From Pseudomonadota bacterium (lineage in GTDB: Bacteria; Pseudomonadota; Gammaproteobacteria; Magnimaribacterales; D2472), in NCBI GenBank assembly GCA_028404565.1, contig JAOOBR010000001.1:62001-126000 (forward strand): 64,000 nucleotides of DNA, written 5' to 3'. Positions 9,809 through 30,671 of this stretch are shown here, piece by piece. The notes under the pieces are model-generated. The model saw only the letters and a list, made by a program, of their open reading frames with translations, made no database searches and had not been told where the DNA came from. Positions within the stretch are counted from its first letter, which is position 1. Every line of letters starts with the position of its first letter. The translations under genes were made by a program, and so were the position numbers.

Positions 9809-9810
9809 GA

Positions 9811-9829
9811 GGGAGAGCAAAAGTCTCCC
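9811..9829. terminator. Possible bidirectional terminator hairpin
   Basis: GGGAGA-gcaaaag-TCTCCC stem just after the TerB-like stop, between convergent units; weak T-tracts. Confidence 0.35.
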
Positions 9830-9850
9830 CCCTATATTCAGCATGCTAGA

Positions 9851-10060
9851 TTAACGCTGTATGAAAGAGTTGTTACTCTGAGCCTTAAGCGTGTCACTCA
9901 CATCTAGCTCGATTACGCCTCTGCTGAAAGAAGCTTTGAGATAAAAGGCTCTTTTAATTTCTTATTCAGCATGATTGTAAAATTCCGTTTCATTTTTTGA
10001 AGCAATGAATTTGTAAGTATTTATGTTGGGAAGTTCTAGTTGAATTTCAGGTCTTTGCAT
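9851..10060 (-). pseudogene. Small ORF interrupted by an in-frame TAA (or two tandem segments)
   Basis: SD aaggag then MQRPEIQLELPNINTYKFIASKNETEFYNHAE*EIKRAFYLKASFSRGVIELDVSDTLKAQSNNSFIQR* in a single frame; first segment 9962-10060. Confidence 0.45.
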
Positions 10061-10108
10061 TGATCTCTCCTTTGCTAAATATTTCATAGCTCAATAATAT
10101 GCTTACCT

Positions 10109-10127
10109 TGCGTCAATAAGTGTCGCA
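10109..10127 (-). promoter_or_regulatory. Copy 3 of 19-bp putative WYL operator (TGCGACACTTATTGACGCA on minus)
   Basis: 16/19 match to copy 4, near-palindromic; upstream of the 1053-aa gene and of the small minus-strand ORF. Confidence 0.7.
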
Positions 10128-10143
10128 AATAAATAATCTCATG

Positions 10144-10162
10144 TACGACACTTAATGACGTA
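10144..10162 (+). promoter_or_regulatory. Copy 4 of 19-bp putative WYL operator (TACGACACTTAATGACGTA)
   Basis: Inverted relative to copy 3, 35 bp centre-to-centre; 21 bp before the 10184 ATG. Confidence 0.7.
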
Positions 10163-10183
10163 ACAAACCATTAAAGTGTAGAT

Positions 10184-13345: not shown

Positions 13346-13359
13346 TATAAAATGTATTA

Positions 13360-14940
13360 ATGAAAATATTGCCGCCCTCTGGTAGTCGAAGTAAGGCTGA
13401 AAATATAATAAGAGATTGCATAAAGAATCTCCCTTCAAAAAGCAGTGAGATTGCTCTTTGGTCTGTGCATGTGCCAGAACATGCAACGAAAGAATTCTCA
13501 GAAGTTGATTTTATTTTATTAACTCGAAAAGGCATTTGCTGCATAGAGGTTAAAGGTGGGAGAGTTGAATATACAAATGGGTCATTTATTTTCATAAATA
13601 GATTTGGGGATAAAAATGTAAAACATGAAGGTCCAATTCAACAAGTTGCAGGCAATAAAAAAGAATTACAAAGAAAGCTAAGAGATAAATTTCCTGATTT
13701 GAATATTTGTCTCGCTCACTGTGCTATTTTTCCACAATGTGTTTTTGAGGCAGATGATGATGCTTTTGAGGATGAGCCTTATCTTATTTTGGATAATAAG
13801 AACTATTCAGATGATCCTAATCTTTGGTTTGAAAATTTTATCAAGAAGGTTTTTAAACGGTTTAAGGAACACAGATCCTATAAACATTCAAAAGATCTCT
13901 CTGATGATGATTTGAAAAGAATAAGGAAATATTTAAGACCGAACATAATTGGTATCAGGCCGTTAGCAAATATTGCTAAAGAAATAAATGCACATATTCA
14001 TAAAGCTACCGAGGAACAATTAGATTATTTAGAGAGCATTACTGATCCTCTTAATCGAAGGGTGCTTTGTAGAGGACCAGCTGGCTCAGGTAAAACAATT
14101 CTTGCATTAAAAGCTACTGAAGTTTGTTATCAGAATGGTGAAAAAGTTTGTTTTTTAGTAAGGAATAAGGCTTTTAAACAATATATAAAAAGATATTTGA
14201 GTGAAGAAATTGAAATCCTATGCATCGAAGATGGCTTTGATTCATCAGATAAGTTCGATTCCGTTGTGGTTGATGAAGGTCAAGATATGCTGAATGTTGA
14301 ATGTATGGATAAATTTGAATCCATACTAAAAGATATCAAGAAATCAAAGGTTTTTTGGTTTATGGATATGAATAATCAGAGTCATTTATACGATGACTTC
14401 GATGAAAGTTGGTTAACTTATTTTCAAGATGGCTTTTCTTCAATCAACTTAACTCGAAATTGTAGAAATCCAATTGAAATAATTAACTCAACAAACTCAA
14501 TTGCTGGAACTAATCTTAAAGGAAATCTTGAAGCAAAATCTGAAGAAACAAAAATATCTTTGGTAAACAGCAATCAAAAGATTAAACATGCTGAAGCGTT
14601 ATTGGAGATGATTGGATTCTTTTTTGAAAAAGATATTGCGCCAGATCAAATTACAATAATCACATTTGAAACTCTCAGAAATAGCTGTGTATATGAGTTA
14701 GATGCCTTGTCAAAACAGATAAATAAACCAAATTGTGTTGATGCTAACCTAAAGAAGATAAACTTTTTTGATGTCTTGAGCTATAAGGGACAGGAGAATG
14801 ACTTTATTATATTAATTGACCTATATAGCGACAATGATGCAAAAATTTTGGGAAACCAATTTTATACTGCACTTACTAGAGCTAAAGTACAAGGCGCAAT
14901 AATTAAACATGAGAATTTGAACTTGGACTTCAATGTATAG
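13360..14940 (+). CDS. NERD nuclease domain fused to SF1 (UvrD-like) helicase
   Basis: EVDFILLTRKGICCIEVKGG (NERD), RGPAGSGKTILALKA (Walker A), VVVDEGQDM, QFYTALTRAKVQGAI (SF1 C-terminal motif). Confidence 0.85.
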   Translation: MKILPPSGSRSKAENIIRDCIKNLPSKSSEIALWSVHVPEHATKEFSEVDFILLTRKGICCIEVKGGRVEYTNGSFIFINRFGDKNVKHEGPIQQVAGNKKELQRKLRDKFPDLNICLAHCAIFPQCVFEADDDAFEDEPYLILDNKNYSDDPNLWFENFIKKVFKRFKEHRSYKHSKDLSDDDLKRIRKYLRPNIIGIRPLANIAKEINAHIHKATEEQLDYLESITDPLNRRVLCRGPAGSGKTILALKATEVCYQNGEKVCFLVRNKAFKQYIKRYLSEEIEILCIEDGFDSSDKFDSVVVDEGQDMLNVECMDKFESILKDIKKSKVFWFMDMNNQSHLYDDFDESWLTYFQDGFSSINLTRNCRNPIEIINSTNSIAGTNLKGNLEAKSEETKISLVNSNQKIKHAEALLEMIGFFFEKDIAPDQITIITFETLRNSCVYELDALSKQINKPNCVDANLKKINFFDVLSYKGQENDFIILIDLYSDNDAKILGNQFYTALTRAKVQGAIIKHENLNLDFNV

Positions 14941-17900
14941 AGAAGAAATCCTAGGTTATATCGAGGACCAATTTATGGGGCCCTCTTATGGAGAGCCCCA
15001 TTTTTTAAAACATAATAAAGATTACTTACCCTATCAGCATCTGATTACTGGAATGCTTTTCCCACAAGAATCTGATCTATCTGAGGAAGCAATTGCTGAT
15101 CAAAATTCTACTGCGAGTATTGTTGATACAAATGAGGATCCATTAAGTCTATCCTTTACGTATTTAACTGCAAGTGTTGGGATGAGTTTGCATGTACCCA
15201 ATGATGTAAAAGAAATTCTTATAACCACTCGTGCCTGTGTTTATGAAGAAGAAAGCGAGAATGAGTTGCCTGATGATAATGAAAAAAATGACTTTAGATG
15301 GTCTCGCAAAGATCTGCCAGAAGAAAATTCAGTTTTAGAAATTAAAACTCAAAAAGTAGAAATTTTCAGTGGAAAAGCAGAGATTGATCTGAGGGTTTTT
15401 GATTCAAGAGGAAAAAAGCTCCTTACTGTGACCCTAATTAATAATTCAAAAAAGGAGAGTCGGTCAAAAATAGATCAAAAAGATGTTCTATGCAGAGTTA
15501 GCATGGAGTGCTCACTAAAGGATGATAACTTTTTACCTTATCCTAAAGTTTTTAGGAAAACCGCAGATGGTGAAGAGGAAGAGCAGCAGATTTTATATAA
15601 GGATGAACATATTTTTGGAGTTGGTCATGCATGCTCAGTTAATTGGACATTTAAAGAAAATACTAATGACTGTGCAAAAGTCTCCCTAGACTTTATTCCT
15701 AAAGAAATAACAATTGGATCTAAAAGCGAGCTAGATGAATATAACGGATCTGAGAGTATTAATATGGAGTATCTTGCAAACCCAGAAAATACTGAATCGT
15801 TGATAAAAAGTTTAATAAAATTCGTTGAGCCATATGAAAGTTGGGTTGATAAAACTTGTCTGGAACTTAAAAAGCTTAAAAAAAATACTGATAGTTTAGA
15901 TTATTTCGAAATAGGCGATGCTCATAAAAAAACTATTGATAGATTAATTAATAAGTTGAATTATGCAGTTGAAAGGATTCATGATGGCATTAATTTTATC
16001 TCTAATGACAATAACGCCTTAAAAGCATTTCAATTTGCTAATAAAGCCGTCTTGATGCAGATGGTTCATGCTGTTAAATATAATCAGCTAATTGAAGAAA
16101 ATAATCTTGATTATATGAAGTTCCAAATGGATCATGAGTTTGTCGATGATTTTCAAAATATTAATTACTTTGATCTTAAAAGCTTTTTTGGCAAATCCTA
16201 TAAACCTTTTAATTGGAGGCCATTTCAACTTGCCTATTTCCTAACAACATGTAAATCAGTAGTTTTAGAGGATGATGAAAATAGAAGTATGGTTGATCTT
16301 ATCTGGTTTGCAACAGGTGGTGGTAAAACTGAAGCATATCTTTTTGTTTCTGCTTTTCTTATTTTCTATAGGAAGTTAATTGATAAAAATCATGATCAAG
16401 TTGAAATTTTAATGCGCTATACATTAAGGCTCCTCACTCAAGATCAGTTTGTAAGATCATCTAGATTAATAGCAGCATGTGAAAAAATTAGAAGGGAAAA
16501 TGAGGACATATTTGGAAAAAATGAAATTTCATTAGGTTTATGGATTGGAGGAAGTTCAAGTCCAAATAAGTTTGTTGGTAGTCAGTACATGCAGGGTTCA
16601 AGCGAGCAATATATAGAACTTCTTAAAAATGATAGTCCAAATAGTGAGTCGCCTTTTAGCATATCGATGTGTCCTTGGTGCAGTACAAATCTAGTTCCAG
16701 ACAAACAGTCTGATGAAAAGTGTTATGGCTTCAAATCTTCAGATATGAGTTTTGAGCTTTACTGCCCAAGTCAAAGTTGTGAATTTCATGAAAAACTTCC
16801 AATTCAGGTTGTTGATCAGGCTATATATCAAAAACCACCTACTTTTTTATTAGCAACAATCGACAAATTTGCTCAATTAGCTCAAGTTGCTGAGAGCGGA
16901 AAAATTTTAAATAAAGACCTTGGCTCCTCATTAAGCTTGATAATTCAAGATGAATTACATCTTATATCAGGACCCTTAGGAACTGTTACAGGTGCCGTAG
17001 AAGCTGTTTTCGATGTTTTGTTAAAACATTTTGGAGCAAAACCAAAATATATTGCTGCAACAGCAACAATTAGAGGAGCAAAAGATCAAGTTGAAAGACT
17101 ATATGCAAGGGATGTAAATATTTTTCCTCCATCTGGAATTAACCACAAGGATAGATTTTTTTCTAGAGAAGATACTAAAGATCCTGGTAGATTATATGTA
17201 GGTGTAATGTCTCAAGGGCATACAGCAATTACTACAAGAGTCAGAATTGCGAGTGCTTTATCTCAGTCTGTTGAAGAAATTCCAGGAGATAAAGAGGTTG
17301 TTGATGGATACCATACTCTTGTTATTTATCACAACTCAAGAAATGAAAAATCTAAAACAAAAACCTTAGCTGTTCAGGATATTCCAGAAAGGATTAAACA
17401 AATAGCTTCACTAAATGATGATTTTTCAAAGGAAAATATTCCACCTAGATTGTTTGGAGAAAATGGAATTGGGGAGTTATCTTCAGATGTACAGCATGAG
17501 CTTTTTGAAACGAGAAAAAGACTGGAATTAATGAAAGGCCAAGATGATGCTATTGATATTGTTTCTGTCACCAATATTATCCAAGTTGGAATTGATATCC
17601 CCAGACTGGCTTTAATGCAAGTAACTGGTCAACCTAAAACTACTTCAGAATTCATTCAAGCAACATCAAGAGTAGGAAGAGGGAAAAATAAGGGTTTGGT
17701 AGTTGTAAATTATCTTGCAACAAATCCTAGAGACAGATCTCACTATGAGCAATTTAAAGGCTATATTTCCTCAGTAAACAGATTTGTAGAGCCAACATCT
17801 GTGACACCTGCAGCAGAACCATGCTTGAGGAGAGTATTGCCAACATGCCTATTAATATTAGCTAAACATGGTTTGGGTCTTAAACAAAATATAGATGCTC

Positions 17901-18199
17901 AACATTTTGATGCGAGCAGCAATGAAGCAAAGGAACTTATTGAAATGTTTAAAGACCGTATGATCAATGCTGATAAAACTGAAAAGGCAAATATTGAAAA
18001 ATTGATTGATAGCTATATAGATGATTGGGAAAAATTATCTAATGGAGATAAAGTTCTTACTTATCATGCTAAATTTGGAGTAGAGTCCAATAAAAAGGCT
18101 CTTACTAGAGACTTTGGTGATGAAAAGAATGAAGCTGAATGGGAGATCCTAACATCAATGCGTCATGTAGATACAGAGGTGGGAATAAAAATAGAGTGA
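14933..18199 (+). CDS. drmA: DISARM DrmA-like SF2 helicase
   Basis: N-terminal GPSYGEP...YLPYQHLITGMLFPQ, WFATGGGKTEAYL, IIQDELHLISGPLG, TNIIQVGIDIPRLALMQVTGQPKTTSEFIQATSRVGRG; CPWC/C..C cluster. Confidence 0.8.
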   Translation: MYREEILGYIEDQFMGPSYGEPHFLKHNKDYLPYQHLITGMLFPQESDLSEEAIADQNSTASIVDTNEDPLSLSFTYLTASVGMSLHVPNDVKEILITTRACVYEEESENELPDDNEKNDFRWSRKDLPEENSVLEIKTQKVEIFSGKAEIDLRVFDSRGKKLLTVTLINNSKKESRSKIDQKDVLCRVSMECSLKDDNFLPYPKVFRKTADGEEEEQQILYKDEHIFGVGHACSVNWTFKENTNDCAKVSLDFIPKEITIGSKSELDEYNGSESINMEYLANPENTESLIKSLIKFVEPYESWVDKTCLELKKLKKNTDSLDYFEIGDAHKKTIDRLINKLNYAVERIHDGINFISNDNNALKAFQFANKAVLMQMVHAVKYNQLIEENNLDYMKFQMDHEFVDDFQNINYFDLKSFFGKSYKPFNWRPFQLAYFLTTCKSVVLEDDENRSMVDLIWFATGGGKTEAYLFVSAFLIFYRKLIDKNHDQVEILMRYTLRLLTQDQFVRSSRLIAACEKIRRENEDIFGKNEISLGLWIGGSSSPNKFVGSQYMQGSSEQYIELLKNDSPNSESPFSISMCPWCSTNLVPDKQSDEKCYGFKSSDMSFELYCPSQSCEFHEKLPIQVVDQAIYQKPPTFLLATIDKFAQLAQVAESGKILNKDLGSSLSLIIQDELHLISGPLGTVTGAVEAVFDVLLKHFGAKPKYIAATATIRGAKDQVERLYARDVNIFPPSGINHKDRFFSREDTKDPGRLYVGVMSQGHTAITTRVRIASALSQSVEEIPGDKEVVDGYHTLVIYHNSRNEKSKTKTLAVQDIPERIKQIASLNDDFSKENIPPRLFGENGIGELSSDVQHELFETRKRLELMKGQDDAIDIVSVTNIIQVGIDIPRLALMQVTGQPKTTSEFIQATSRVGRGKNKGLVVVNYLATNPRDRSHYEQFKGYISSVNRFVEPTSVTPAAEPCLRRVLPTCLLILAKHGLGLKQNIDAQHFDASSNEAKELIEMFKDRMINADKTEKANIEKLIDSYIDDWEKLSNGDKVLTYHAKFGVESNKKALTRDFGDEKNEAEWEILTSMRHVDTEVGIKIE

Positions 18200-20028
18200 G
18201 TGATGGCAAATTAAGAAAATCTCAATTGCTTACAAGTTTTGGTGTAGGGGCAATTGTTGAGATTAATGATCAAAGTCTGATGGGAATGGATATTTCTAGA
18301 TGGAGTCCATCAATAACCAAGAATAAAAAATATCGGATTTCTCCAATTCCTAGACTTGAGAAGATGCTCAAGAAAAGCTTTTTTATTTCACCGCCTACTG
18401 CGCCCTCTGAAATTTGGAAAGATGCGTCCCAAACTGCTTCTATACCCTATCATAGATTTCCGAAATGGCTTGAGTGTAGAAAGTGCAACTCCCTAAGAAA
18501 CTATCAATCTCAAAGGTTTACTGCTTATAAAGATCTTTCGTGCCTTAAATGCGGAGCAAATAGCAAATTCCTATCTCCCATTCGATTCATTTACTCAGGT
18601 GATAATGGTTATCTTGATGATATAAATTGGGTTTATTTGCTTCATTACGGAGAAACATCAGGTTGTAGAGAAAATCATCTTACCAAAAAAACGCTGGGGG
18701 GAAGAGGCGGTGGATTATCAGCAATTGAAATTAGTTGTGATAAATGTGGTGTAAAAAAGAATTTGAGTCAGATTAAGCAATTAATTTATTTGCAAAGTCC
18801 AAGATCAAGTCATCCTTGGGAGCAAAGAATAAATGCCAAAGTTGAAAAAAAAGATCATCAACCATTTCAGCAAAGAGGTGCAACGTCTTTATATCAGCCA
18901 AGAATAGTCTCTGCACTTGATTTGAGTGGATCTGATTACGAAGATGATATTGGAAGTGAAGTTGATCAATTTTTGCAAGATCATGAGGATATTCTTGATG
19001 CTAGAAAATTTCTAAGTGACGCAAAAGAAATGAATATATGGGACCAAAACATAGATGATAAAAAAATCAAGCAAGCATATGAAAAAATAAATAGTGATCT
19101 GCCATTAGATTTTGAAAAAATACCTCTTGAAAAAATAAAAAGCTCAATTCATGAAGAAAAGACAGATGTTAGCGAAAAAAATGAAGAGGTAAACTTAGAT
19201 GATGTGGACTCAGAGTCTTTAAAAATAGCTGAATATGCTCTATTAAATGATGATGGAAGGCAAAAAATAAAAAACTATGATGGAGAGAAATATTTTATAT
19301 CTGACAAAATCCTTTCAAAGTATATAAGATCAGTAACAAAAATAAGAAGATTAAGAGAAGTCAGGGTTTTATCTGGTTATACAAGACACTTTTATCCCAC
19401 AATTCATAATATCAATGCTAGTGAAAAAGTTTTGCCATGGTTACCTGGTTATGAGGTTTTTGGAGAAGGAATTTTTATAGATTTTAATTCAAGTTCAATT
19501 AAATCTTGGGTAAAAAAGAATTCTAAGGCAATTGCATCCAGATTATCAGTTATGCAAAAAAGGAGAGATGAGAGTGCTACAAATCTACCCTTTCCATCTG
19601 CAAAATTTGTTCTTCTTCATACGTTTTCACATCTAATGATCAAACAACTATGTTTTGAATCAGGTTATGGTTCTTCTGCTCTAAAAGAAAGAATATACGT
19701 GGGAGATGATCAAAATGAGATGCAAGGGATTCTTATTTATACTGCTGACGGTGATACTGAAGGCTCTCTTGGAGGGCTTGTCAGGATGGGAGAGGAAGAT
19801 AGACTAATGAATTCAGTAGAGTCCATGATTAGTTCTGCCAAATGGTGCTCATCAGATCCTGCTTGCCTTGAAATAGGATCTCCTGGAACAAGAGGATTGA
19901 ATAAGGCTTCATGTCATGCATGCTCTTTAATTTCAGAAACTTCCTGTGTTCACATGAATGCTCTTTTAGACAGAGGATTAATAGTTGGTTCTGAAAAAGA
20001 AAATTTGCAAGGATTTTTTGATCTATGA
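18196..20028 (+). CDS. drmB: DISARM DrmB-like DUF1998 protein
   Basis: LRKSQLLTSFGVGAIVEI N-terminus, paired CxxC zinc motifs, LLHTFSHLMIKQLCFESGYGSSALKERIY...GILIYTADGDTEGSLGGLV DUF1998 signature; GTG at 18196 overlaps the drmA TGA. Confidence 0.85.
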   Translation: MSDGKLRKSQLLTSFGVGAIVEINDQSLMGMDISRWSPSITKNKKYRISPIPRLEKMLKKSFFISPPTAPSEIWKDASQTASIPYHRFPKWLECRKCNSLRNYQSQRFTAYKDLSCLKCGANSKFLSPIRFIYSGDNGYLDDINWVYLLHYGETSGCRENHLTKKTLGGRGGGLSAIEISCDKCGVKKNLSQIKQLIYLQSPRSSHPWEQRINAKVEKKDHQPFQQRGATSLYQPRIVSALDLSGSDYEDDIGSEVDQFLQDHEDILDARKFLSDAKEMNIWDQNIDDKKIKQAYEKINSDLPLDFEKIPLEKIKSSIHEEKTDVSEKNEEVNLDDVDSESLKIAEYALLNDDGRQKIKNYDGEKYFISDKILSKYIRSVTKIRRLREVRVLSGYTRHFYPTIHNINASEKVLPWLPGYEVFGEGIFIDFNSSSIKSWVKKNSKAIASRLSVMQKRRDESATNLPFPSAKFVLLHTFSHLMIKQLCFESGYGSSALKERIYVGDDQNEMQGILIYTADGDTEGSLGGLVRMGEEDRLMNSVESMISSAKWCSSDPACLEIGSPGTRGLNKASCHACSLISETSCVHMNALLDRGLIVGSEKENLQGFFDL

Positions 20029-22172
20029 GACATTTCCCTAAAAATACAGACCTGTCAGATGAGCAAAAGATAATTTACTCAGAACATTTAGATAAAGCAT
20101 TATTGATAACAGGGCCTCCTGGAACAGGTAAAACTGTAATGGCAATAATGCGTGCATTAAGAATGGGTAAAGAAATGGAAGATATCAATGCAAAAGTTCC
20201 AATATTGATGCACAACAAAACTTTATATGAATTTACTTCAACTCAAGCCTCTGTTAATAAAAATATTAAAGTCCAAACGCTTATGAGTTACCTTCTTCAA
20301 AGAACAAATTTGCGTATGCTTAATGATGGGCAGAATATATCTTTTCCTTGGGGACAGTTGTATAGGATGATAGATAGTAAAAATCCTGATGAAATAAAAA
20401 AACTCAATCTTTTTCCAAAGTTTGTTATTCTTGATGAAGGTCAAGACTTCCCTAAAACTCTGTGGAAAGTAATTTCAAATATATGGATGAAACTAAGATC
20501 AGTTGATATAAATTTTGTTCCATCAATTATGGCTGATGAAAACCAAGCTCTAAATGTAGATGAGAATAGTACAATAGATGATATAAGGCATGGTCTCTCA
20601 ACAACTGATTGTTTTGGGAGTTTCAAGGAATCGAAATTAACAAAAAACTATCGAAATACAAAAGAAATTGCTGCATTTGCTGAAAAATTCTATGTTGGCA
20701 ATCAAACCGAAAAAGCTGATTCATCCCAGTGCAGATCTGGAGTTAAGCCTAAACTTTTTTGGCACAGAGGTTATAAAAATAATAGGCTTATTGAAAGAAT
20801 CGTAAATTATAAAAAAAGTAATCCCAATAAAAGCGTTGGTGTAATAATTGTAAATAGAAATTCGGCAAGCAGAGTAAAAACTCTTTTTAAAGGTATAGAG
20901 AATTATGTCAGAATAAATAATCTTGATATAAAAGTTCAATACTATCTTTCCAGTGATAGACAACGTCTTCAAGCTTTAGATTTTGATAATCCAAAAACTA
21001 TTACGGTTATAACAAGACAAAGTTGTAAAGGACTTGAGTTTGATTGTGTTTTTGTTCCAAAAATAAATGACCTTGAATATGATAATTTAGGTTTTGAGTA
21101 TTCAAGAGACTTATATGTAGTATTTCATAGGGCACGAGATCAACTCTTTATAACTGCAGGTATGAGTGCTGATGAAGAAAAAGATAATATATTTACAGTC
21201 CCCCCAATTTTAAAAAATCACCTCAAAACTAGGGACTATAGGGGCAAAACTATTGATGTAGGCTTCAGAGATGAAGATGAACTTTTATCCTATATTGATG
21301 TCGATAGAAATCTTGATAGAGAACAAAGATCAAAAGCAGAGGAAATACTTAAGCAAAGACAAAGAGAAAAACTTTTAAGTGATGAAAATATAGAGTTACA
21401 AAAAGAGCAAGTTAAAGAGAATACTAATTCAATAAAAATTAAGGCAGAAGAAAAAAATATTAGAATCCAAAAAATTTATAATGCAGCCTCGCTTTTCATT
21501 GAAAAAAAGAAATGGACAATAGCTAATGATAAATTATTGAGAGAGAACATTTCTGCACTTGCAGGCGGGGACCAAGGTATATTGCTAGCAAAATGGGAAA
21601 GAAAAGGTCTAAAAGATAATCGTCTTCCCAAAATAAAGATTGCCAGTAAAAAAACAAAGAAAAAAATAAAGTCTCCTCTTTTAGAGCTTGATTTTGTAAC
21701 TGGCTCAGATGGTACATTTTTGAGACTACTAGATATTATAAAAGAAACTTTATCAAACGATGATCATGAAATAATTCAAATAATCTCATCAAAAAAGAAA
21801 CCAAAAAGGATTTTTAAAAAGGTATCAAACCTTCTTACCAACAATAAAGCTGGTATCAGTGACCAGATTATGCCGAACATGTCTTCGAATACCATTCATT
21901 TTTTTTATAAAGGTCAAAAAAGATTTATTAAGATTATTTCACCAAATGATGAGGTAGATTGGTTTCAGAAAATTATTTTACTTGGCGTTGAAGATCTTAA
22001 ATCAGAAGATATATCTGAAGATATTCAAGAACTTTTACTAAATTTATTTTTAAAGCCTGCACATGACACATGCATAATCCATCCAAATACAGATGAAGAA
22101 ACACCTGGTGTAAAATACATGTATGAAAAGAATGATGATGGTAACTTAATAACAAGATATTATGAAAAATAA
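20025..22172 (+). CDS. SF1 (UvrD/Rep-like) helicase with C-terminal extension
   Basis: LLITGPPGTGKTVMAIMRAL, FVILDEGQDFPKTLW, TRQSCKGLEFDCVFVP, LYVVFHRARDQLFIT; ATGA overlap with the upstream gene. Confidence 0.85.
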   Translation: MRHFPKNTDLSDEQKIIYSEHLDKALLITGPPGTGKTVMAIMRALRMGKEMEDINAKVPILMHNKTLYEFTSTQASVNKNIKVQTLMSYLLQRTNLRMLNDGQNISFPWGQLYRMIDSKNPDEIKKLNLFPKFVILDEGQDFPKTLWKVISNIWMKLRSVDINFVPSIMADENQALNVDENSTIDDIRHGLSTTDCFGSFKESKLTKNYRNTKEIAAFAEKFYVGNQTEKADSSQCRSGVKPKLFWHRGYKNNRLIERIVNYKKSNPNKSVGVIIVNRNSASRVKTLFKGIENYVRINNLDIKVQYYLSSDRQRLQALDFDNPKTITVITRQSCKGLEFDCVFVPKINDLEYDNLGFEYSRDLYVVFHRARDQLFITAGMSADEEKDNIFTVPPILKNHLKTRDYRGKTIDVGFRDEDELLSYIDVDRNLDREQRSKAEEILKQRQREKLLSDENIELQKEQVKENTNSIKIKAEEKNIRIQKIYNAASLFIEKKKWTIANDKLLRENISALAGGDQGILLAKWERKGLKDNRLPKIKIASKKTKKKIKSPLLELDFVTGSDGTFLRLLDIIKETLSNDDHEIIQIISSKKKPKRIFKKVSNLLTNNKAGISDQIMPNMSSNTIHFFYKGQKRFIKIISPNDEVDWFQKIILLGVEDLKSEDISEDIQELLLNLFLKPAHDTCIIHPNTDEETPGVKYMYEKNDDGNLITRYYEK

Positions 22173-23820
22173 AAAATCACTATATATTTACTCAAATAGT
22201 TCTGATCTCAGCCTTTTCTTTGCTTCAAGTATAATTGCACCATCAGGAACGTCAAAAGGACTAAAGAGTTCTGCATACTTTGAAATTGATCATTCTGTTC
22301 AACTGTTTAATTCTGTAAATAGTGATTATGCATCTTATTTTGATAAAAATAGAGAGGAGAATCTTGTACCAGTTGTCCTTGAAATAAATCCAGCAGTGCT
22401 AAATTCCTTCTATAGCATAGATGAAAAAAAGAGCCTCATTAAAACGAACTCACTTGAGTTCTATTTACTGCCATTTGTTCCAATTTACTTTGTTAAAAAT
22501 ATACATTTTGCATCAAGAGATGATTTAGAGCATTTCAATCAAATTAAATTTGGTAATGTAAATAATTCTGTTATCGATAATAAAATTGTTAGTCCAAACT
22601 TTTTTGATGGGTCATATAAAAAATGTAAGCATATGGACATAAATGAAAGTCCTTTAATTCCTATATCAAAGACAAGCTCAATAGACTCTCTTTTAGGAAG
22701 CATCCAAATTCTAATATATGTTGCTAAAAATGAGACATCAACAACAAAAACAAGACAATATCTTGATTTCATTAAAAGATTCATAAACCGGGAGGATCTT
22801 TATGAACTGGGTGAACGCTATTCGCTGGATATATTAGAAACTTTTGATAAGGGTATATCAGATATTAAAGAACGAGATTCTCTTGAAGTAAAAGTATTTA
22901 AAGCTAGTCTTCTCAAACTTTCAAGTGAGGCATTTCAGGATAAAACTATGGATGCAGACTTTATTGAAGACATAGTTGACCTTATTCCTGGATCAATTCT
23001 TTCAAAAGAAGAAGAGGAGCAGATAGAGCAGTTTTTGGATTTAATTGAAGATATATCTTCAGGGGAATTTCCTTTAAAAGATGATTTTTTTACTGAGGAA
23101 AAAAGAGTAACTATTTGGTCATCCTTAATTCTATTAATGACTCAAATTGGTTCAAGAGAAGCACTTGATATTATTGAAATGTTTAAAAAAGGTAGAGTAA
23201 GAGAAGATATTTTTATAATGTCATTAATGTTATTTGGTTTATTTAGAAATTACTCATCCTTGGACTTATTTTTTAAAGAGGCCGATATGAGCTATCTCAG
23301 AAATATATCTCTATTATCAAGTCCTCTTCTCTCTGATTTTCAAGATGGGCTGCCTGTTGAGCTAATAGATAAAACAAGCCCAGATAATATAAGTAAATGG
23401 ATAGAATTAAAGGTAAGTAACGAAACAGTTACCAATGTCAGTATTGATGATCCTTTCTATACTTCTATTGTTGCCCAAGCTAATGAGGCTGGATTTAGCT
23501 TTGAAAGTTATGGCGATGATATTTATGTTCATAAAGACCTCGATAAAGATGTGCCAGATCTCTTCCTTATTAAAGGAGCTAAAAATAATTTTAGGTTAAA
23601 AACTGAGCCTGTAAGCAAGAATCTTTCTAAACTCAAAAAAGAAAATCTTATCGAGATTTTGCAGGCAGCCAGTGACTTTGATTTTAGATCCTCAGTGATT
23701 GTTGAAAAAAATATGCTTTTTTTAAAACGTGATCAACTATCCTCCACTCTCGATATTGAAGAAATGCAACTCATGGTTAATGATTTAAAAGAGAACTTTA
23801 AAACGCTTAAAGATCTCTAA
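22162..23820 (+). CDS. Hypothetical protein (orphan, block C)
   Basis: 552-aa ORF overlapping both neighbours in the operon; no recognised motif. Confidence 0.8.
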   Translation: MKNKKSLYIYSNSSDLSLFFASSIIAPSGTSKGLKSSAYFEIDHSVQLFNSVNSDYASYFDKNREENLVPVVLEINPAVLNSFYSIDEKKSLIKTNSLEFYLLPFVPIYFVKNIHFASRDDLEHFNQIKFGNVNNSVIDNKIVSPNFFDGSYKKCKHMDINESPLIPISKTSSIDSLLGSIQILIYVAKNETSTTKTRQYLDFIKRFINREDLYELGERYSLDILETFDKGISDIKERDSLEVKVFKASLLKLSSEAFQDKTMDADFIEDIVDLIPGSILSKEEEEQIEQFLDLIEDISSGEFPLKDDFFTEEKRVTIWSSLILLMTQIGSREALDIIEMFKKGRVREDIFIMSLMLFGLFRNYSSLDLFFKEADMSYLRNISLLSSPLLSDFQDGLPVELIDKTSPDNISKWIELKVSNETVTNVSIDDPFYTSIVAQANEAGFSFESYGDDIYVHKDLDKDVPDLFLIKGAKNNFRLKTEPVSKNLSKLKKENLIEILQAASDFDFRSSVIVEKNMLFLKRDQLSSTLDIEEMQLMVNDLKENFKTLKDL

Positions 23821-25028
23821 TGAAATACATTAGTCTGTTTACTGGTATTGGAGGTTTTGAATCTGCAAAACATGATCCAATCTTGATGTGTGAAAAGGAC
23901 AAACACTGTCAAGAGTTTCTATCAAGAAAATATACTGATATTGAAATTATTGATGATGTTAACACGCTTGCATCAAAAAAAAATAAATTACCCAAAGTTG
24001 ATGTAGTTGCTGGAGGTTGGCCGTGTCAGGACCTCAGCGTTGCTGGGAAACAAGAGGGTTTTAATGGCAAACAAAGCATTTTATTTTATAAACTTTTAGA
24101 GATTGCAATAAAATCTAGATCGGACACTATAGTTGCAGAAAATGTACCAAATCTTTTAAATATAGAGCAAGGTCGAGTCTTTGTAGATGTCTTGAATGAA
24201 CTAAAAAATGCTGGTTTTTGTCATATTGCGTGGAGAATCTTAAATACAAGAGAATTTAATATTCCGCAACAAAGAAGAAGATTATTTATTGTTGCATCTA
24301 AAGATAAACAAATTGCAAAAAATCTATTTAATAAGGTCAATGTAAAGATATCTTCTCCAAAAAATAAAACAAAAGTTTCTGGATTTTATCAATCTGCTGG
24401 AACTCACTCTATTTGTTATAGCGAAAACTTTGTTCCAACAATTAAGGTTTCAAATGGGCCTGCTATCCACTATAAAAATATAATGAGAAAGCTTACTGCA
24501 AAGGAGTCGTTAAAATTACAAGGGTTCAAGATAAATGATTTCAAGGATATTGCTGATAGCCATATTTATAAAATGACTGGTAATGCAGTAACTAAAAAAG
24601 TTGGAAATTTTATTTTCAATTGCCTTGAAAAACTAAAATTAAACCTTGATATGAATCCGTTACAGCGTGGCTCAAACTTCTTTTCATCTGATATCAATAA
24701 GATTTTATATAAGCCAGAAAATGGTTTTTTTTCTGAAGATGTAATCTATGAAGTTATATTGCCTAAAAAAGAGCTTTGCTCTAATCTTGCAGACTTCATT
24801 GAACTAAAGAGTAATTCATTTATGAGTGATACTGCCCTTCTTGGCATGCTAAGAAGAGCTAAAAAGGCAAAAAAACCTATTAACAGAGATCTATTCAATT
24901 CTATTTTGCTAACTGTCGAATCTAATAGTCTAATTAATGAAATAGGAGAAGATGGGATAAGAGACTTTAAGCATGGAAAGTTCTCAGAAAATCCAAATGG
25001 AGAGTTATTTGAAGAAATACTTTTTTAA
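23820..25028 (+). CDS. C5-cytosine DNA methyltransferase (DrmMII/DruM-type position)
   Basis: ISLFTGIGGFE motif I, GGWPCQDLSVAGK motif IV, VAENVPNLL motif VI, QQRRRLFIVA motif VIII, IYKMTGNAV motif X; extra C-terminal region. Confidence 0.93.
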   Translation: MKYISLFTGIGGFESAKHDPILMCEKDKHCQEFLSRKYTDIEIIDDVNTLASKKNKLPKVDVVAGGWPCQDLSVAGKQEGFNGKQSILFYKLLEIAIKSRSDTIVAENVPNLLNIEQGRVFVDVLNELKNAGFCHIAWRILNTREFNIPQQRRRLFIVASKDKQIAKNLFNKVNVKISSPKNKTKVSGFYQSAGTHSICYSENFVPTIKVSNGPAIHYKNIMRKLTAKESLKLQGFKINDFKDIADSHIYKMTGNAVTKKVGNFIFNCLEKLKLNLDMNPLQRGSNFFSSDINKILYKPENGFFSEDVIYEVILPKKELCSNLADFIELKSNSFMSDTALLGMLRRAKKAKKPINRDLFNSILLTVESNSLINEIGEDGIRDFKHGKFSENPNGELFEEILF

Positions 25029-25041
25029 ATGAACTATTAAA

Positions 25042-25959
25042 TTAATTTAACTTTAGTATTTTTTCTTTTATGCCAGCTCCCGAATAAAGCTCAAGATCAA
25101 TTTTAGGCTCACCGCATATTAGTAGAGAAAAATTTGCTCTGTTTATTAAGACTCTTATCAAGCAAGACTCTTCAAAGTTTTTAATTTTTTGTATTCTTTC
25201 AATGGATTTAGATTCTCGTGAGTGAACTTCTTGGAAAAAAAGATAATAAAGCTTCATAACATCCCCAAAGCTGCTAAAAAGCATCCTAATATGATCAAAA
25301 TAGTTTTCGGTTGTTGTTTTGATGTTAGGTTGCAAAATCTTAGAATCTAAGAATTGAAGTTCGTTAAAAACATACTTTTTATAAATATCATTTGAAACTC
25401 CCTCATCAGCTAAATCAATTGCACGCCTTATGCTCCCAAAGATTTTCGAATTTAATTCTCTGTATGCCTCTTCAGTGTTTGGATCAAAGAAGCCTGTAAG
25501 AAGTTCCAGTGATGCTTTTTCAGCTCTAAATCTATATAAAGATATTTCGTGAAGAGCATGGGTTGGATTCTTAGGATCTAACTTATCCATCATATTTTTT
25601 GAGTAAGCTATCATCTCATTGAGATCATTCATCAGTGAAGTCATTTGAATATCTTTACACTCGTTAACAGCATAATAACTTTCAGGAGTTACAGAGTTGA
25701 TATAACTAAAAACATGATCCTTTGTTATTTTTAGGATCTCACTTTCAGTAGAATCTTCCAATAATGATCTTTCATTTGCTTTATTAAAATACAGAAAAGC
25801 TTTTTCCATATTCTCTGCAATTAACTCTTTACTCAAAGGCTCTTGATCCTCATGCAAATCACAAAAACTAATATCAATATCTGCAATAATTGATTGAGCA
25901 ATTTGTAAATAAGCTGCTGCTATTAAATACTCTTTCTTATTTTCTTGAAATTTATTCAC
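25042..25959 (-). CDS. Hypothetical helical protein (block D)
   Basis: 305-aa ORF, 8-bp overlap with the upstream DruA-like gene. Confidence 0.75.
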   Translation of the reverse strand: MNKFQENKKEYLIAAAYLQIAQSIIADIDISFCDLHEDQEPLSKELIAENMEKAFLYFNKANERSLLEDSTESEILKITKDHVFSYINSVTPESYYAVNECKDIQMTSLMNDLNEMIAYSKNMMDKLDPKNPTHALHEISLYRFRAEKASLELLTGFFDPNTEEAYRELNSKIFGSIRRAIDLADEGVSNDIYKKYVFNELQFLDSKILQPNIKTTTENYFDHIRMLFSSFGDVMKLYYLFFQEVHSRESKSIERIQKIKNFEESCLIRVLINRANFSLLICGEPKIDLELYSGAGIKEKILKLN

Positions 25960-27910
25960 TTTCTATGCTCTCAATCTTATGACTTAATAGTTGTTCTTTT
26001 ATTTTTGCTGTTTTCATTTGCTTTTGAATCTCTTCTCGATGAATTCTTTTTTCAAGCCATCTTTTTCTCCATGCTTTTGAGATTTGGTTTTGTGAAATAT
26101 TTCTTGGTTTAGAACTTTTTAATCCAAATATTTCATGCGGTGTACTCTCATAAAGATCACACAAGTATGTGATTCTTTTGTTTTGATGTTGAAAAAAACC
26201 ATCTGATCTAAATCCCAAATTAGACATTGATTCCCTTAATCTTCTCATTCTTGGACTTGTTCCCTCTCCAAACTCATAATTAATTCGAGTAGTTTTACCT
26301 GTAAGGTTCAAATATTTATCAAGGTAATCTTGTGTATCATCGGAGAAATGATAGGTACCATACCCCATGGATTCTCCTAAGTTTTCCCAGTTAATTCTTT
26401 GCTCCTTCTTTCCTTTGAGAATATTTATCTTAAGTCTGTTGTATTGAGATGAGCCTACTCCATAAATACTTGTGGTTGTTATACATCTTAAAGTTGAAGA
26501 TTTCCTGATATTTCTTCCAGCCATCTTTCTAGCAATCTCTCTTTCAGAATTCTTGTATCTATTGTGAAAAATATCTCTGGCTTCATTGGAAGCCATAAGA
26601 AGCGCAACTAATTTTCCTGAAATAAGGCTGTTATATGGGAATATACCCCCACAAACACTAAGATCCATTACATCAGAATCCATTACTGATGTTCTTTTAG
26701 CAGTTATAAACCCTCCAAGCAAATCCAGAAATTTGGAATTTTTGTCAACATCTTCTAACTTTAAGTCGAACTTCTTTTTATCTTTTTTTAACTCGTTCAA
26801 GGTAATTTTTCTTTTTACAAGTTTGCTCAGTTTATCCGCCCTCTTAGCTTTAAAAAGAAGGAAGTCCATTTCACCTTTGAGTGAATCAAATTTCTTATTC
26901 TTTATGGTAGCTGTATCCCAACTAGCATTTAAATTCCTGAATTTGCTTCCTAGTATTTCCCAGTGCTTTTTAGCTTCTTTACTCTCTTCAATAAGTTCCA
27001 AAATATTTGTCTCTTTAGGCATCCTCCAGTTAATTTTTGGAAGGTCATCTATTTTTAGGGCTTTTAAACTTTTGTTTATGTCTTCGCCTATCCAAATGAT
27101 AATTTGATCTAATGAAATACTTTCTTCATGAGCAAATTCTAAAAATGATTCTTTAGTAAGTCTAAGACGCTTATCCCTTGGTCCTAATCCAATAACTGGG
27201 CTTGCCATCATTGCAATTCCCATTATGGGATGATTTGGTCTTGCCTTATTTCTAATAAGAAAAGGCAGGGATCTGCCCGGATTGGTCTTGTACTCTAATG
27301 ACCAGGTAAGCCTAAAATATCTCCAAATTTCTGTAAGTTTAATGTTGGTAAATTGATCTTTTAAATCTGATCTTACTTCTTGAAGATAAGGATCAATCAC
27401 GGGTTTAAGGCAATCATCCTTATTTTCATCAAAGCTAATTAAGCAATCCTCTATTAACGTTTTAGGATCATCGATCAAAAGCTCAATTGTTTCTCGTGTT
27501 TTGGTTGCAGTATGCATTCTTTGGATAAAGTTCCTTACTGAACTCTTTGTAAATTGTTTATTTGCTCCAATTAGATGACCCTCTCTAATCCTTCCCTTTG
27601 CTTGGCTTAGACTCTCTGACTTTCTTTTGAGTTGCGGTGGTGAAGCGTGAATCTCCTGCCTTTCATTAATATCTTCTTCCTCAACATTGTCTCTTACTTT
27701 GATGTCCCACCCTTGATCTGTAAGGTCAGCTATAACTGAAAATATAGTTAGCTCTCTTAGGTTTTTGTTTGTTTGTTTCTGAGTTGATAAATATCTTCGA
27801 ATAGCACTCGCTAAAGAATTTTTCTCTTTAGATTTTAAGCTTTCAGCTTTAATTAGCTCATAGCGAGAGGCTAACTTATTATTGATTTCTTTTGGTATTT
27901 CTATTCGCAT
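25952..27910 (-). CDS. DUF4338 / Druantia DruA-like protein
   Basis: GRSLPFLIRNKARPNHPIMGIAMMASPVIGLGPRDKRL and CGGIFPYNSLISGKLVALLMASNEARDIF...STLRCITTTSIYGVGSSQYNRLKI...GYGTYHFSDDT resemble DUF4338/DruA. Confidence 0.7.
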   Translation of the reverse strand: MRIEIPKEINNKLASRYELIKAESLKSKEKNSLASAIRRYLSTQKQTNKNLRELTIFSVIADLTDQGWDIKVRDNVEEEDINERQEIHASPPQLKRKSESLSQAKGRIREGHLIGANKQFTKSSVRNFIQRMHTATKTRETIELLIDDPKTLIEDCLISFDENKDDCLKPVIDPYLQEVRSDLKDQFTNIKLTEIWRYFRLTWSLEYKTNPGRSLPFLIRNKARPNHPIMGIAMMASPVIGLGPRDKRLRLTKESFLEFAHEESISLDQIIIWIGEDINKSLKALKIDDLPKINWRMPKETNILELIEESKEAKKHWEILGSKFRNLNASWDTATIKNKKFDSLKGEMDFLLFKAKRADKLSKLVKRKITLNELKKDKKKFDLKLEDVDKNSKFLDLLGGFITAKRTSVMDSDVMDLSVCGGIFPYNSLISGKLVALLMASNEARDIFHNRYKNSEREIARKMAGRNIRKSSTLRCITTTSIYGVGSSQYNRLKINILKGKKEQRINWENLGESMGYGTYHFSDDTQDYLDKYLNLTGKTTRINYEFGEGTSPRMRRLRESMSNLGFRSDGFFQHQNKRITYLCDLYESTPHEIFGLKSSKPRNISQNQISKAWRKRWLEKRIHREEIQKQMKTAKIKEQLLSHKIESIESE

Positions 27911-27937
27911 CTTTATCTCTTAAGGTTAGCAAGAATG

Positions 27938-27967
27938 GTTGGAGTAAGGTTAAGAACCCACTCCAAC
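27938..27967 (-). promoter_or_regulatory. Intercistronic hairpin between the GHKL and DruA-like genes
   Basis: GTTGGAGT-gGGTT-ctt-AACC-tt-ACTCCAAC on minus: 8-bp outer and 4-bp inner stems, no T-run. Confidence 0.55.
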
Positions 27968-27990
27968 TCATCATTGCGTTTCAGTTATTA

Positions 27991-29784
27991 TTAGCTTGCT
28001 TTGGATAACTCTTTCTTAAGTTTTTTGAATGAGTCATTCATCATAGAGGACCAAAAACTGATTTCACGAGCATAAAAAGCCTCGTTCATATCATTGATAT
28101 AGTACCTCTCAGCAAGTGTCATCAAGAAAGCCTCAATGTATTGTCTAATATCACCATTCGAAGATGGATTCATATAGAAGTCTTTGTAGAAAACATGAGC
28201 TGTATTAAGATCAACTCTAAGCTCATTCCCAAAAACCGAGATGAATATGAAATCACCGCCAGGAACATTTATCGTTCCATGTCTGAACACCCTCTTTTTA
28301 TTAGTTTGTTCGCCAGTAATATCTTTCTTCTTTGATTCAATATTTTCTTCAGTCAATTCCTGATTCTGGTCAAGAAGTTGCTTCTTGGCAGCTTCAGTAA
28401 CTTTCTCATCACCTATTTTCAATATGTGCTCTTCTTCGACTGGAAGAGGATTTTGAAAAGAAGATGCTTCAGCTGACGCAATTTCAGATGGCCTTGGACC
28501 ATCGTCATCAGATCTATCATTCTCGTCTCTCAAGATATCTGACTCTTCAGTGCATCTTTTCCTCAAATCACTTAGCATTGGAAAAAACATCTTCGAATTC
28601 TCCAAGATGTCCCAAACCTCTGCCTTAGGCATAGCCTGTTGTTTAGTTGTTGTTATGCTAAACAAGTTATCAAGCGACGCATCGAAGTCAAGAACCACTT
28701 TAAACCAAGCATCATTGTTCCCAAAGACTTTTACTAAAGGTCTCTTTGGAGCATTTGGCCAAATTGACGCAGGTATCCTTGAAATGCAATCAATTATCCT
28801 GCCATTTCTAGAAATGATAAAACCGTTGTATTCTCTAGTCACACGGCCTCTAACCTTTGTAGTATCGATTTCTTTACTAACAAATTTGGGTCCTAAGTAA
28901 GCAAAACTGACTCTAAGTTTCCCCTTTTGTCCTGTAATTTCATCGGTTAGAGTAAATTCCTGAGAAGGCAATTGAACTGCTTTAGAACCACCTATGTCAT
29001 AAGCTACGCCCTTAGGATCAGAGAATGTTGGATCAATTGGTAAAACCATCTCTTCACACACACTCATACTAATCCTATCTAGATACTTATGAAATGTTGC
29101 ACCTAAGTGATGTATAAGATGAGTTTTAAGTCCATTCAATGACTTATTGGTTAAGCAATGTCTATTGAGATCAGACATGACAACAATAGTTCCAGACTTG
29201 AAGCCACCAAAATCATCGTCAGTGATTTTCTGAAGATGTTTTGGCAATGCTTTAATAGAGGTTGCCTCTGGCATTAACATATCACCTGTCTTCTTGTCAG
29301 TGTATTCTCCTTTCGAGCAAGCATTAAGATCAAATGACAATTCATAGATTGGCTTGCCAGGTTCCTTAGAGTACACCGTCATAACATTGCCCTGACTCAT
29401 GCATGATGCAGGCAAGCCAAAACCGTATCTTCCAAATAAATCAGAAGAGCCTTCTCTGTCTGTACCTCCAAAAGTCATTGCATATCTTAGAGTTACATCA
29501 TCCATACCAAATCCATTATCAGCAAAGATTAATTCGGTTATTTGGTTTTTGTTATCACCATAACGGATTTCAATAGATACCTTGGATGCATTAGCTTCAA
29601 TACTATTGTCAATAATTTCTGCAGCTGCTGAGCCGGTACTTTTATATCCAATACTTTGAATTGATCTCACAAACGCATCATTAGCTGCGATTGTGAACTT
29701 AGTTTTACTATCAACAAGTTTTTTGACAAAAGCTGCTCTTCTGTCTTTTTGCTTGTTTGTTGCTAAATTATTTACGTTTACCAT
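27991..29784 (-). CDS. GHKL (Hsp90/MutL/MORC-type) ATPase
   Basis: AAAEIIDNSIEANA (N-box), FADNGFGMD (G1), GRYGFGLPASCMS (G2). Confidence 0.9.
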   Translation of the reverse strand: MVNVNNLATNKQKDRRAAFVKKLVDSKTKFTIAANDAFVRSIQSIGYKSTGSAAAEIIDNSIEANASKVSIEIRYGDNKNQITELIFADNGFGMDDVTLRYAMTFGGTDREGSSDLFGRYGFGLPASCMSQGNVMTVYSKEPGKPIYELSFDLNACSKGEYTDKKTGDMLMPEATSIKALPKHLQKITDDDFGGFKSGTIVVMSDLNRHCLTNKSLNGLKTHLIHHLGATFHKYLDRISMSVCEEMVLPIDPTFSDPKGVAYDIGGSKAVQLPSQEFTLTDEITGQKGKLRVSFAYLGPKFVSKEIDTTKVRGRVTREYNGFIISRNGRIIDCISRIPASIWPNAPKRPLVKVFGNNDAWFKVVLDFDASLDNLFSITTTKQQAMPKAEVWDILENSKMFFPMLSDLRKRCTEESDILRDENDRSDDDGPRPSEIASAEASSFQNPLPVEEEHILKIGDEKVTEAAKKQLLDQNQELTEENIESKKKDITGEQTNKKRVFRHGTINVPGGDFIFISVFGNELRVDLNTAHVFYKDFYMNPSSNGDIRQYIEAFLMTLAERYYINDMNEAFYAREISFWSSMMNDSFKKLKKELSKAS

Positions 29785-29793
29785 ATTATCCTC

Positions 29794-30162
29794 CTATGCT
29801 GATAAAGCAGTTTGTTCAAGTGAGTTTTGGATATGTGCTGGTAATGCGCATGGGCTATCACTTGAGATTAACATTCTATCCTTTGAAAAAAAGATACCCT
29901 GGTTAGATGTAAAAAATAACAATCCCTTACACTTAATATTGCCTAGTAGTTTGTAGGTTTTATTGAAGCCAAATTCAATTTTTTTTGCAGCCTCACTAAT
30001 ATTACATCCTTGATAGACCATATAATCAAATAACAAATATTCATCATCAGTTAATTGATCAGAAAATTTCATTAGTAGATTTTTATCTACAAATGAAAAT
30101 AAGTTATATGTTTGAAGTACGTATTTAGACAATACGCCTTCGCTCGTTTTGTTGTTATACAT
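29794..30162 (-). CDS. Small HTH-like protein, first gene of block D
   Basis: LTDDEYLLFDYMVYQGCNISEAAKKIEFGFNKTYKLLGNIKCKGLL resembles a winged HTH; 9-bp gap to the GHKL gene. Confidence 0.6.
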   Translation of the reverse strand: MYNNKTSEGVLSKYVLQTYNLFSFVDKNLLMKFSDQLTDDEYLLFDYMVYQGCNISEAAKKIEFGFNKTYKLLGNIKCKGLLFFTSNQGIFFSKDRMLISSDSPCALPAHIQNSLEQTALSA

Positions 30163-30329: not shown

Positions 30330-30671
30330 ATGGAAGTGAAAAATATTTTTATAGTTTTCAATAATCATGATTTTAAACCTATATTCTTAGGTAGTTCTAA
30401 ATCAAAATCTGCTGAATGTATTAGATCTATTTTTGCCGATGCAATGAGTAATAAAAAGGATGTGCTTTCTAAATGGGTGAATGAGCAATGGGATAATGAC
30501 ATTGAAGTTTTGTTTCATGAACTACATTCTGAGTTGACTGATGAGCAAGTAAAGCATTACGAAAAAGAATGGAGACAAACCCTAAGCGGACTAATTGTTG
30601 GTAAATGCATGAAGTCATCAACTGAAAAGGAAGTAAAACTCATCGAAGGATTAAAAGAAATCTACGAATAA
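30330..30671 (+). CDS. Hypothetical protein at the right island edge
   Basis: 113-aa ORF, no recognised motif. Confidence 0.5.
   Translation: MEVKNIFIVFNNHDFKPIFLGSSKSKSAECIRSIFADAMSNKKDVLSKWVNEQWDNDIEVLFHELHSELTDEQVKHYEKEWRQTLSGLIVGKCMKSSTEKEVKLIEGLKEIYE

What the first reader, a model, noticed from the sequence alone, without database searches (positions are those of the whole stretch)
25042..30162. GHKL ATPase paired with a DUF4338/DruA-like protein in a convergent operon
Block D encodes HTH - GHKL ATPase - DruA-like - orphan. DruA is known as a Druantia type I component, there with DruB-D and the large DUF1998 helicase DruE. Here DUF1998 is in the adjacent DrmB, so DrmA+DrmB could functionally replace DruE. 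The GHKL-DruA pairing is not one I recognise.
Basis: partly seen in the sequence, partly recalled or inferred. Interest (0 to 1): 0.68.

Follow-up and report, generated by a model that had tools for sequence, protein, structure and literature searches.

The report
Conserved MORC-like ATPase plus long DruA
A DNA-clamp-type ATPase, related to the MORC proteins that silence genes in animals and plants, sits next to the phage-defence protein DruA in bacteria of many phyla; the two genes are inherited as one unit, here in a small defence cassette of an ocean bacterium that lacks the helicase usually found nearby.

Summary
In detail: window 25042-30162 (minus strand) encodes a small HTH-like protein, a GHKL ATPase, a full-length DruA (PADLOC DruA1, E=2e-137) and an orphan. 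The GHKL-DruA pair is a real, widespread unit: 78 of 87 "long" DruA proteins have a same-strand GHKL gene directly upstream, and GHKL and DruA distances correlate at 0.97, against 0.73 for DruA and DruE. The GHKL is MORC-like by fold and profile. Long DruA carries an insertion of about 150 residues inside DUF4338 that short DruA lack. I found no paper naming the pair. Between the two SAR86 copies HTH-GHKL DNA is far more alike than DruA and the orphan, which suggests that DruA-orphan is the variable (specificity) half. Defence function and the clamp mechanism are inferred; nothing has been tested at the bench.

The parts
29794..30162 (-). first gene of the operon: 122-aa protein, probable sigma-70-region-4-like HTH; Shine-Dalgarno-like GGAG upstream
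   Evidence: no Pfam or NCBIfam match; 73% identical in L027; a sigma-70 r4 protein in the same slot in L028
27991..29784 (-). 597-aa MORC-like GHKL ATPase (N-box E56/D59/N60, G1 D89-x-G-x-G, G2 G118-R-x-G-x-G, S5-domain Lys381)
   Evidence: HATPase_c_3 1e-19; motifs invariant in 71 sequences; AF2 model best matches MORC2/MORC4/SMCHD1, E 6e-14; profile best hit MORC2 9e-15 against MutL 7e-8
27938..27967 (-). intercistronic hairpin between GHKL and DruA (11-pair stem), not followed by a clean T run; unique in the genome
   Evidence: a hairpin of different sequence at the same place in L027, L028, L050, L029
25952..27910 (-). 652-aa long-form DruA: DUF4338 domain split by a helical insertion (about residues 262-402)
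   Evidence: PF14236 3e-30; PADLOC DruA1 1.9e-137; AF2 pLDDT 88; insertion absent from six short DruA
25042..25959 (-). 305-aa orphan, overlaps the DruA gene by 8 bases; seen only in SAR86; 29% identical between its two known copies
30330..30671 (+). 113-aa divergent gene sharing the promoter region with the operon; possible degenerate GIY-YIG-fold protein, homologous to divergent neighbours of GHKL-DruA in L027, L022, L023, L028
   Evidence: 26-bit phmmer match between the L022 and L027 proteins; alignment; profile hits only beside GHKL-DruA (profile built from these); GIY-YIG E=0.011 for the L027 copy only, below its cut-off

Best explanation
The block is a self-contained MORC-DruA defence cassette. 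The MORC-like GHKL ATPase and the long form of DruA work as one unit: the ATPase dimerises on ATP binding and closes on DNA as a clamp, as MORC and MutL do, and DruA, docked on it through its extra N-terminal and inserted helical parts, supplies recognition and/or chemistry on invading DNA. In most lineages this unit sits beside the Druantia I proteins DruD, DruE and a 956-aa protein, where the DruE helicase can be recruited. In SAR86, and in some alphaproteobacteria and Bacteroidota, it stands without DruE. The small HTH protein and the divergent gene are probably regulatory, and the fast-changing orphan plus DruA form the specificity half. Shown by computation: the pairing, its co-inheritance, the MORC-like fold, the DruA insertion, independence from DrmAB, absence of DruE in several genomes. 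Inferred: physical complex, DNA clamping, defence activity, roles of orphan and HTH.
For: 76 of 85 DruA relatives have a same-strand GHKL gene within about 100 bases upstream; 78 of 87 with added loci; pairing seen independently in plasmids and in viral-collection contigs. Distance correlation GHKL-DruA 0.95 over 70 loci; 0.97 over 37 loci with DruE, against 0.73 DruA-DruE; partial correlation GHKL-DruA given DruE 0.94, DruA-DruE given GHKL 0.22. MORC-like fold and profile, all ATPase motifs intact. Long DruA has an insertion that short DruA lack, and no GHKL neighbour was found for the short DruA loci checked. Cassette stands alone in L027. No DruE in genomes of L050, L049, L044, L095, with positive controls ringing. 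Context: PADLOC DruD 1e-127/1e-149 and DruE beside it elsewhere; defence hotspot shared with a DISARM-like operon. Mosaic identity.
Against: No experiment is known to me for any member. The DruA model has no significant PDB match (best E 0.66), so its chemistry is unknown. The distance correlation also reflects shared descent of adjacent genes, and DruE lies farther away. Seven long DruA use a DndF-like ATPase instead of GHKL and two have neither, so GHKL is not obligatory for long DruA. The survey patterns came from four GHKL-paired DruA, which biases towards paired ones. Host genomes are incomplete (the window genome is 79% complete), so DruE could be missed there.
Confidence: 0.5

Rival explanations
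1. One reading: DrmA+DrmB of the neighbouring operon replace DruE, so the whole 13-30 kb block is one hybrid Druantia-DISARM system.
For: DrmAB and DruE are homologous YprA helicases (PMC12458937). DruE is convergent downstream of DruA in 27 of 37 loci, the place of the DISARM-like operon here. The window genome shows no DruE; only DrmA rings, weakly.
Against: Each cassette occurs alone at the same hotspot in relatives (L027/L115 and L114). No DrmA/B within the held flanks of 85 DruA loci. Only the window has both among 203 genomes. L027 keeps the four genes without either helicase.
Confidence: 0.1
2. A decayed Druantia I locus: a GHKL-DruA-DruD-DruE system that lost its helicase part and is now non-functional.
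For: Most relatives have DruE or the 956-aa Druantia gene nearby.
Against: All four ORFs are intact in two SAR86 lineages; GHKL motifs are conserved; DruE-less versions occur in several unrelated genomes; the orphan is added, not lost.
Confidence: 0.15
3. GHKL and the HTH act as a regulatory pair (sigma-like protein plus its ATP-dependent partner) that switches on DruA, the sole effector, during infection.
For: Sigma-70-like or other small DNA-binding genes recur directly upstream of GHKL; hairpin between GHKL and DruA; HTH and GHKL share the same recent exchange tract.
Against: The GHKL fold is MORC/Hsp90-like with an S5 domain, not anti-sigma-like; GHKL-DruA co-inheritance is very tight; in many loci the upstream gene is unrelated.
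Confidence: 0.15
4. Toxin-immunity or abortive unit: DruA is a toxic enzyme held by GHKL or by the orphan until infection.
For: Overlapping, fast-evolving small partner gene; weak GNAT-like hints for DruA, a fold used by some toxins (PMC10853773).
Against: The orphan is confined to SAR86 in this survey; no toxicity data; the fold match is insignificant.
Confidence: 0.1

Closest known systems
Druantia type I (DruA-DruB-DruC-DruD-DruE)
   Same: DruA with DUF4338; relatives of this pair lie beside DruD and DruE
   Different: here no DruB-E; DruA is the long form with an insertion; a GHKL ATPase is added, which no held description of Druantia I mentions
Prokaryotic MORC / paraMORC ATPases in restriction-modification operons (Iyer et al. 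2008, PMC2292703)
   Same: GHKL + S5 ATPase in a mobile defence context, often near an SFII helicase; MORC S5 motif matched at 10 of 11 positions
   Different: the described helicase classes (Rad25-like, SNF2, a DThhQXuRhFG type) do not include DruE (motif absent in 47 DruE); the parts of the paper that I read do not describe a DruA partner
DISARM (DrmA, DrmB, methylase)
   Same: sits next door in the window; DrmAB are YprA-family relatives of DruE
   Different: separate operon and separate cassette; not part of the GHKL-DruA unit
MZA system, MzaB
   Same: nearest named GHKL model (PADLOC 4e-13; NCBIfam 2e-17)
   Different: only the N-terminal ATPase region matches, 62.6 bits against a cut-off of 850; no MZA partner among the neighbours scanned
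DruA + DndF/SspF-like ATPase + DndH/FtsK-like translocase loci (L025, L026, L055, L066, L074, L096, L103)
   Same: same long DruA next to, or fused to, an ATPase
   Different: the ATPase is a DndF-like P-loop protein, not GHKL; a large translocase is present instead

Membership tests
Druantia type I | DruA with DUF4338 | tested here: met
   PF14236 3e-30, PADLOC DruA1 1.9e-137
Druantia type I | DruE, the ~1800-2100 aa DUF1998 helicase | tested here: not met
   no DruE in the window genome (79% complete); only DrmA rings weakly
Druantia type I | DruB, DruC, DruD | tested here: not met
   no PADLOC match to DruB/C/D in the nine proteins of the region
MORC family (Iyer 2008 definition) | GHKL motifs plus S5 domain with a basic finger residue | tested here: met
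   motifs and Lys381 invariant in 71 sequences; fold matches to MORC2/3/4 and SMCHD1
MORC family (Iyer 2008 definition) | S5 signature GhXhhpXXRhl | tested here: inconclusive
   10 of 11 positions in 69 of 71 sequences; position 5 is Ser in the window and in the rows shown
DISARM | DrmA+DrmB core as part of the same unit | tested here: not met
   DrmA/DrmB lie in the adjacent operon, but the GHKL-DruA cassette occurs without them
MZA | MzaB ATPase above the family cut-off | tested here: not met
   62.6 bits against 850
Druantia type I | protection against phage | not testable with these tools
   needs plaque assays

The most novel reading that the evidence does not exclude
A widespread, so far unnamed defence module in which a MORC-type ATP-gated DNA clamp is the regular partner of long-form DruA; it can act without any helicase, and DruA (with a variable third protein) is its exchangeable target-recognition half.
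Probability: 0.35. Interest if true: 0.75.

Novelty: new variant of a known kind. Interest (0 to 1): 0.52.

Why it matters
To my knowledge DruA has no assigned mechanism, and prokaryotic MORC ATPases were assigned to restriction systems on genomic context in 2008 (PMC2292703). A tightly co-inherited MORC-DruA pair gives each of them a concrete partner, makes the biochemistry testable with two proteins, and links a bacterial defence unit to the ATPases that silence transposons in plants and animals. It also suggests that detection tools which score DruA only as a Druantia I gene overlook part of the system.

Tried and rejected
DrmAB as a stand-in for DruE: rejected on hotspot and co-occurrence evidence. 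DruA as a DDE transposase relative (Pfam DDE_Tnp_IS1595 E=0.022): no fold support. DruA as GNAT-like: concordant weak hits only (E 3-7; PMC10853773), not claimed. Insertion in DruA as a mark of GHKL pairing alone: rejected, because the DndF-type DruA also have it. The window GHKL in phage records and IMG/VR: only two weak, partial phage matches and no IMG/VR match. Hairpin as a dispersed repeat or recombination site: rejected, one place in the genome. E. coli Druantia I by DNA similarity: no match. GIY-YIG for the 113-aa gene: only a sub-threshold hit for the L027 homologue. Viral structure library: DruA-like folds in giant-virus proteins (E 1.5e-9), not followed.

Full report
What is there. 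On the minus strand the window carries, in order of transcription, a 122-aa protein (29794-30162), a 597-aa GHKL ATPase (27991-29784), a 652-aa DruA (25952-27910) and a 305-aa orphan (25042-25959) whose start overlaps the DruA gene by eight bases. The four genes end 13 bases from the stop of a plus-strand C5-cytosine methylase, the last gene of a DISARM-like operon (NERD-helicase, DrmA, DrmB, helicase, 552-aa orphan, methylase). DruA is beyond doubt: PF14236 at 3e-30 and PADLOC DruA1 at 1.9e-137 over almost the full length. The GHKL hits HATPase_c_3 at 1e-19. The orphan and the 122-aa protein match nothing in Pfam, PADLOC or NCBIfam. The genome is 1.08 Mb in 31 contigs, 79% complete; its closest relative in the survey is an uncultured SAR86 bacterium.

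The pair is real. tblastn on plasmids found Roseivivax, Leisingera and Paracoccus records with both genes adjacent. A scan of about 85,000 species genomes with a four-sequence DruA alignment gave 80 loci. Of the 85 loci then in hand, 76 have a GHKL gene on the same strand directly upstream of DruA. With the window and one further locus, 78 of 87 do, across Pseudomonadota, Actinomycetota, Acidobacteriota, Bacteroidota, Myxococcota, Verrucomicrobiota, Gemmatimonadota and Thermodesulfobacteriota. Of the nine exceptions, seven have a DndF-like P-loop ATPase next to or fused to DruA, with a large DndH/FtsK-like translocase, and two (L038, L057) have neither. The scan patterns came from GHKL-paired sequences, so the fraction is biased upward. 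The family-level sample of 399 phylum genomes gave one more long DruA with GHKL (G071; coordinates) and several short DruA with no GHKL in the 1.5-kb flanks.

Long and short DruA. A Druantia I plasmid locus of Nitrosococcus has a 410-aa DruA followed by a 955-aa protein, a DruD-like protein and a large helicase, and no GHKL. Aligning short and long DruA shows that in the long form the two halves of DUF4338 are split by about 150 residues (window residues ~262-402) that all six short forms lack. AlphaFold2 (pLDDT 88) makes this stretch mostly long helices. The DndF-type DruA also have the insertion, so it marks partnership with an adjacent ATPase rather than with GHKL alone. The DruA fold has no significant PDB match (best E 0.66); the many weak hits to GNAT/MYST acetyltransferases (E 3-7) fit the remark in PMC10853773 that DUF4338 is GNAT-like, but they prove nothing.

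The ATPase is MORC-like. All GHKL motifs and the S5-domain lysine (Lys381) are invariant in 71 sequences. The AlphaFold2 model (pLDDT 85) matches MORC2, MORC4, SMCHD1 and MORC3 best (E down to 6e-14), then Hsp90. The sequence profile hits MORC2 at 9e-15 and MutL at 7e-8. The S5 signature that Iyer et al. 2008 (PMC2292703) used to define MORCs is met at 10 of 11 positions in 69 of 71 sequences; in the window and the other rows printed the failing position is the fifth. That paper placed bacterial MORCs in restriction operons with three classes of SFII helicase. The motif of its third class is absent from the DruE proteins here, and the parts read do not describe a DruA partner. No held paper contains DruA/Druantia together with GHKL or with MORC.

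Co-inheritance. GHKL and DruA identity matrices correlate at 0.95 over 70 loci, with a permutation maximum of 0.20. In the 37 loci with a complete DruE, GHKL-DruA is 0.97 while DruA-DruE is 0.73; the partial correlations are 0.94 for GHKL-DruA given DruE and 0.22 for DruA-DruE given GHKL. GHKL-DruA is therefore the unit, and DruE, DruD (PADLOC 1e-127) and the 956-aa protein (46 loci) are looser neighbours. In 27 of those 37 loci DruE is convergent downstream of DruA. A DruE search in the genomes of DruE-less loci found none in those of L027, L044, L049, L050 and L095, while the positive controls rang.

Is DrmAB a substitute for DruE? The idea is reasonable because both are YprA-family helicases (PMC12458937), and the window genome has no DruE. 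But in 203 genomes of the order, DruA occurs in the window genome and one other, DrmB in the window genome and two others, and only the window has both. The other DruA genome is the SAR86 genome of L027 (same 46,544-base contig), where neither DruE nor DrmA was found. L027 and the window share the flanking host genes (LMW phosphatase, sulfotransferase, PpiB, LpxH, UmuDC on one side, uvrB on the other): L027 carries only the four-gene cassette there, and L114, which shares the phosphatase-sulfotransferase side, carries only the DISARM-like operon. The window therefore has two cassettes in one hotspot.

Mosaic. Along the cassette, window and L027 DNA are 72-84% identical in and just before the HTH, up to 97% in the first part of GHKL and about 80% in its second half, then fall at the GHKL-DruA junction to 54-76% in DruA and about 43-62% in the orphan. 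Third-base identity at four-fold sites is 0.77-0.81 for HTH and GHKL, 0.32 for DruA, and mostly 0.3-0.5 for host genes. Every other locus pair with GHKL above 75% identity has DruA within about 0.12 of it; here the gap is 0.30. HTH-GHKL was exchanged recently between these lineages and DruA-orphan was not. The simplest functional reading is a generic motor and a variable recognition half, but neutral recombination would look the same.

Other parts. A divergent 113-aa gene (30330-30671) shares the promoter region; homologues lie in the same divergent place in L027, Roseivivax, Leisingera and Erythrobacter. A strong hairpin fills the 80-base GHKL-DruA gap (27938-27967). It is unique in the genome, and hairpins of different sequence lie at the same place in L027, L028, L050 and L029 (z -2.4 to -6.2 against mononucleotide shuffles), which fits RNA-level control of the GHKL:DruA ratio. 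Small DNA-binding genes, sigma-70-like or excisionase-like, often lie directly upstream of GHKL.

Verdict. The block is not a member of Druantia I (DruB-E missing) nor of DISARM. It is a new variant of a known kind: the proteins are known, the two-protein unit is not. Defence function and the clamp mechanism are inferred.

Noticed in passing
window 8419-25028: DISARM-like operon: WYL-type regulator, 130-aa and 1053-aa orphans, NERD-UvrD helicase, DrmA, DrmB, a second UvrD-like helicase, a 552-aa orphan and a C5 methylase; DrmC not seen. The 1053-aa/NERD/DrmA/DrmB core recurs in L114.
   Followed up: partly
L055, L066, L074, L096, L103, L025, L026: Long DruA next to or fused to a DndF/SspF-like ATPase, with a ~1500-aa DndH/FtsK-like translocase: another DruA-based system, without GHKL.
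   Followed up: partly
L029, L034, L039, L041, L044, L045, L063 and L071, L095: Variants with two GHKL ATPases plus a sigma/HTH gene before DruA; in the Bacteroidota loci a full sigma-70 factor starts the set and a TIR-like protein follows DruA.
   Followed up: partly
L028, L029, L050, L027 and window, GHKL-DruA gap: Hairpin conserved in structure but not in sequence between the two genes; it coincides with the identity break between the two SAR86 copies.
   Followed up: partly
L028 5756-6808, L050 5733-6902, L044 4159-5244, L071 3580-4599, L055 19813-20811: A ~330-390 aa protein family (start like 'SSxxRxxYxxDIxxxLxLPxGxxxxFRYxxxW') recurs beside DruA loci of different kinds; function unknown.
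   Followed up: no
AlphaFold model of window 25952-27910: Giant-virus proteins (Faunusvirus A0A3G4ZXG3, E 1.5e-9; Yasminevirus A0A5K0UAJ3, E 3e-8) share the DruA fold.
   Followed up: no
L077 11780-13018 and L060 11809-13005: A Cas4/DruK-like PD-(D/E)XK nuclease gene (scanned in L077 only) lies between DruA and DruE; a gene of similar size and start holds the same place in L060.
   Followed up: no
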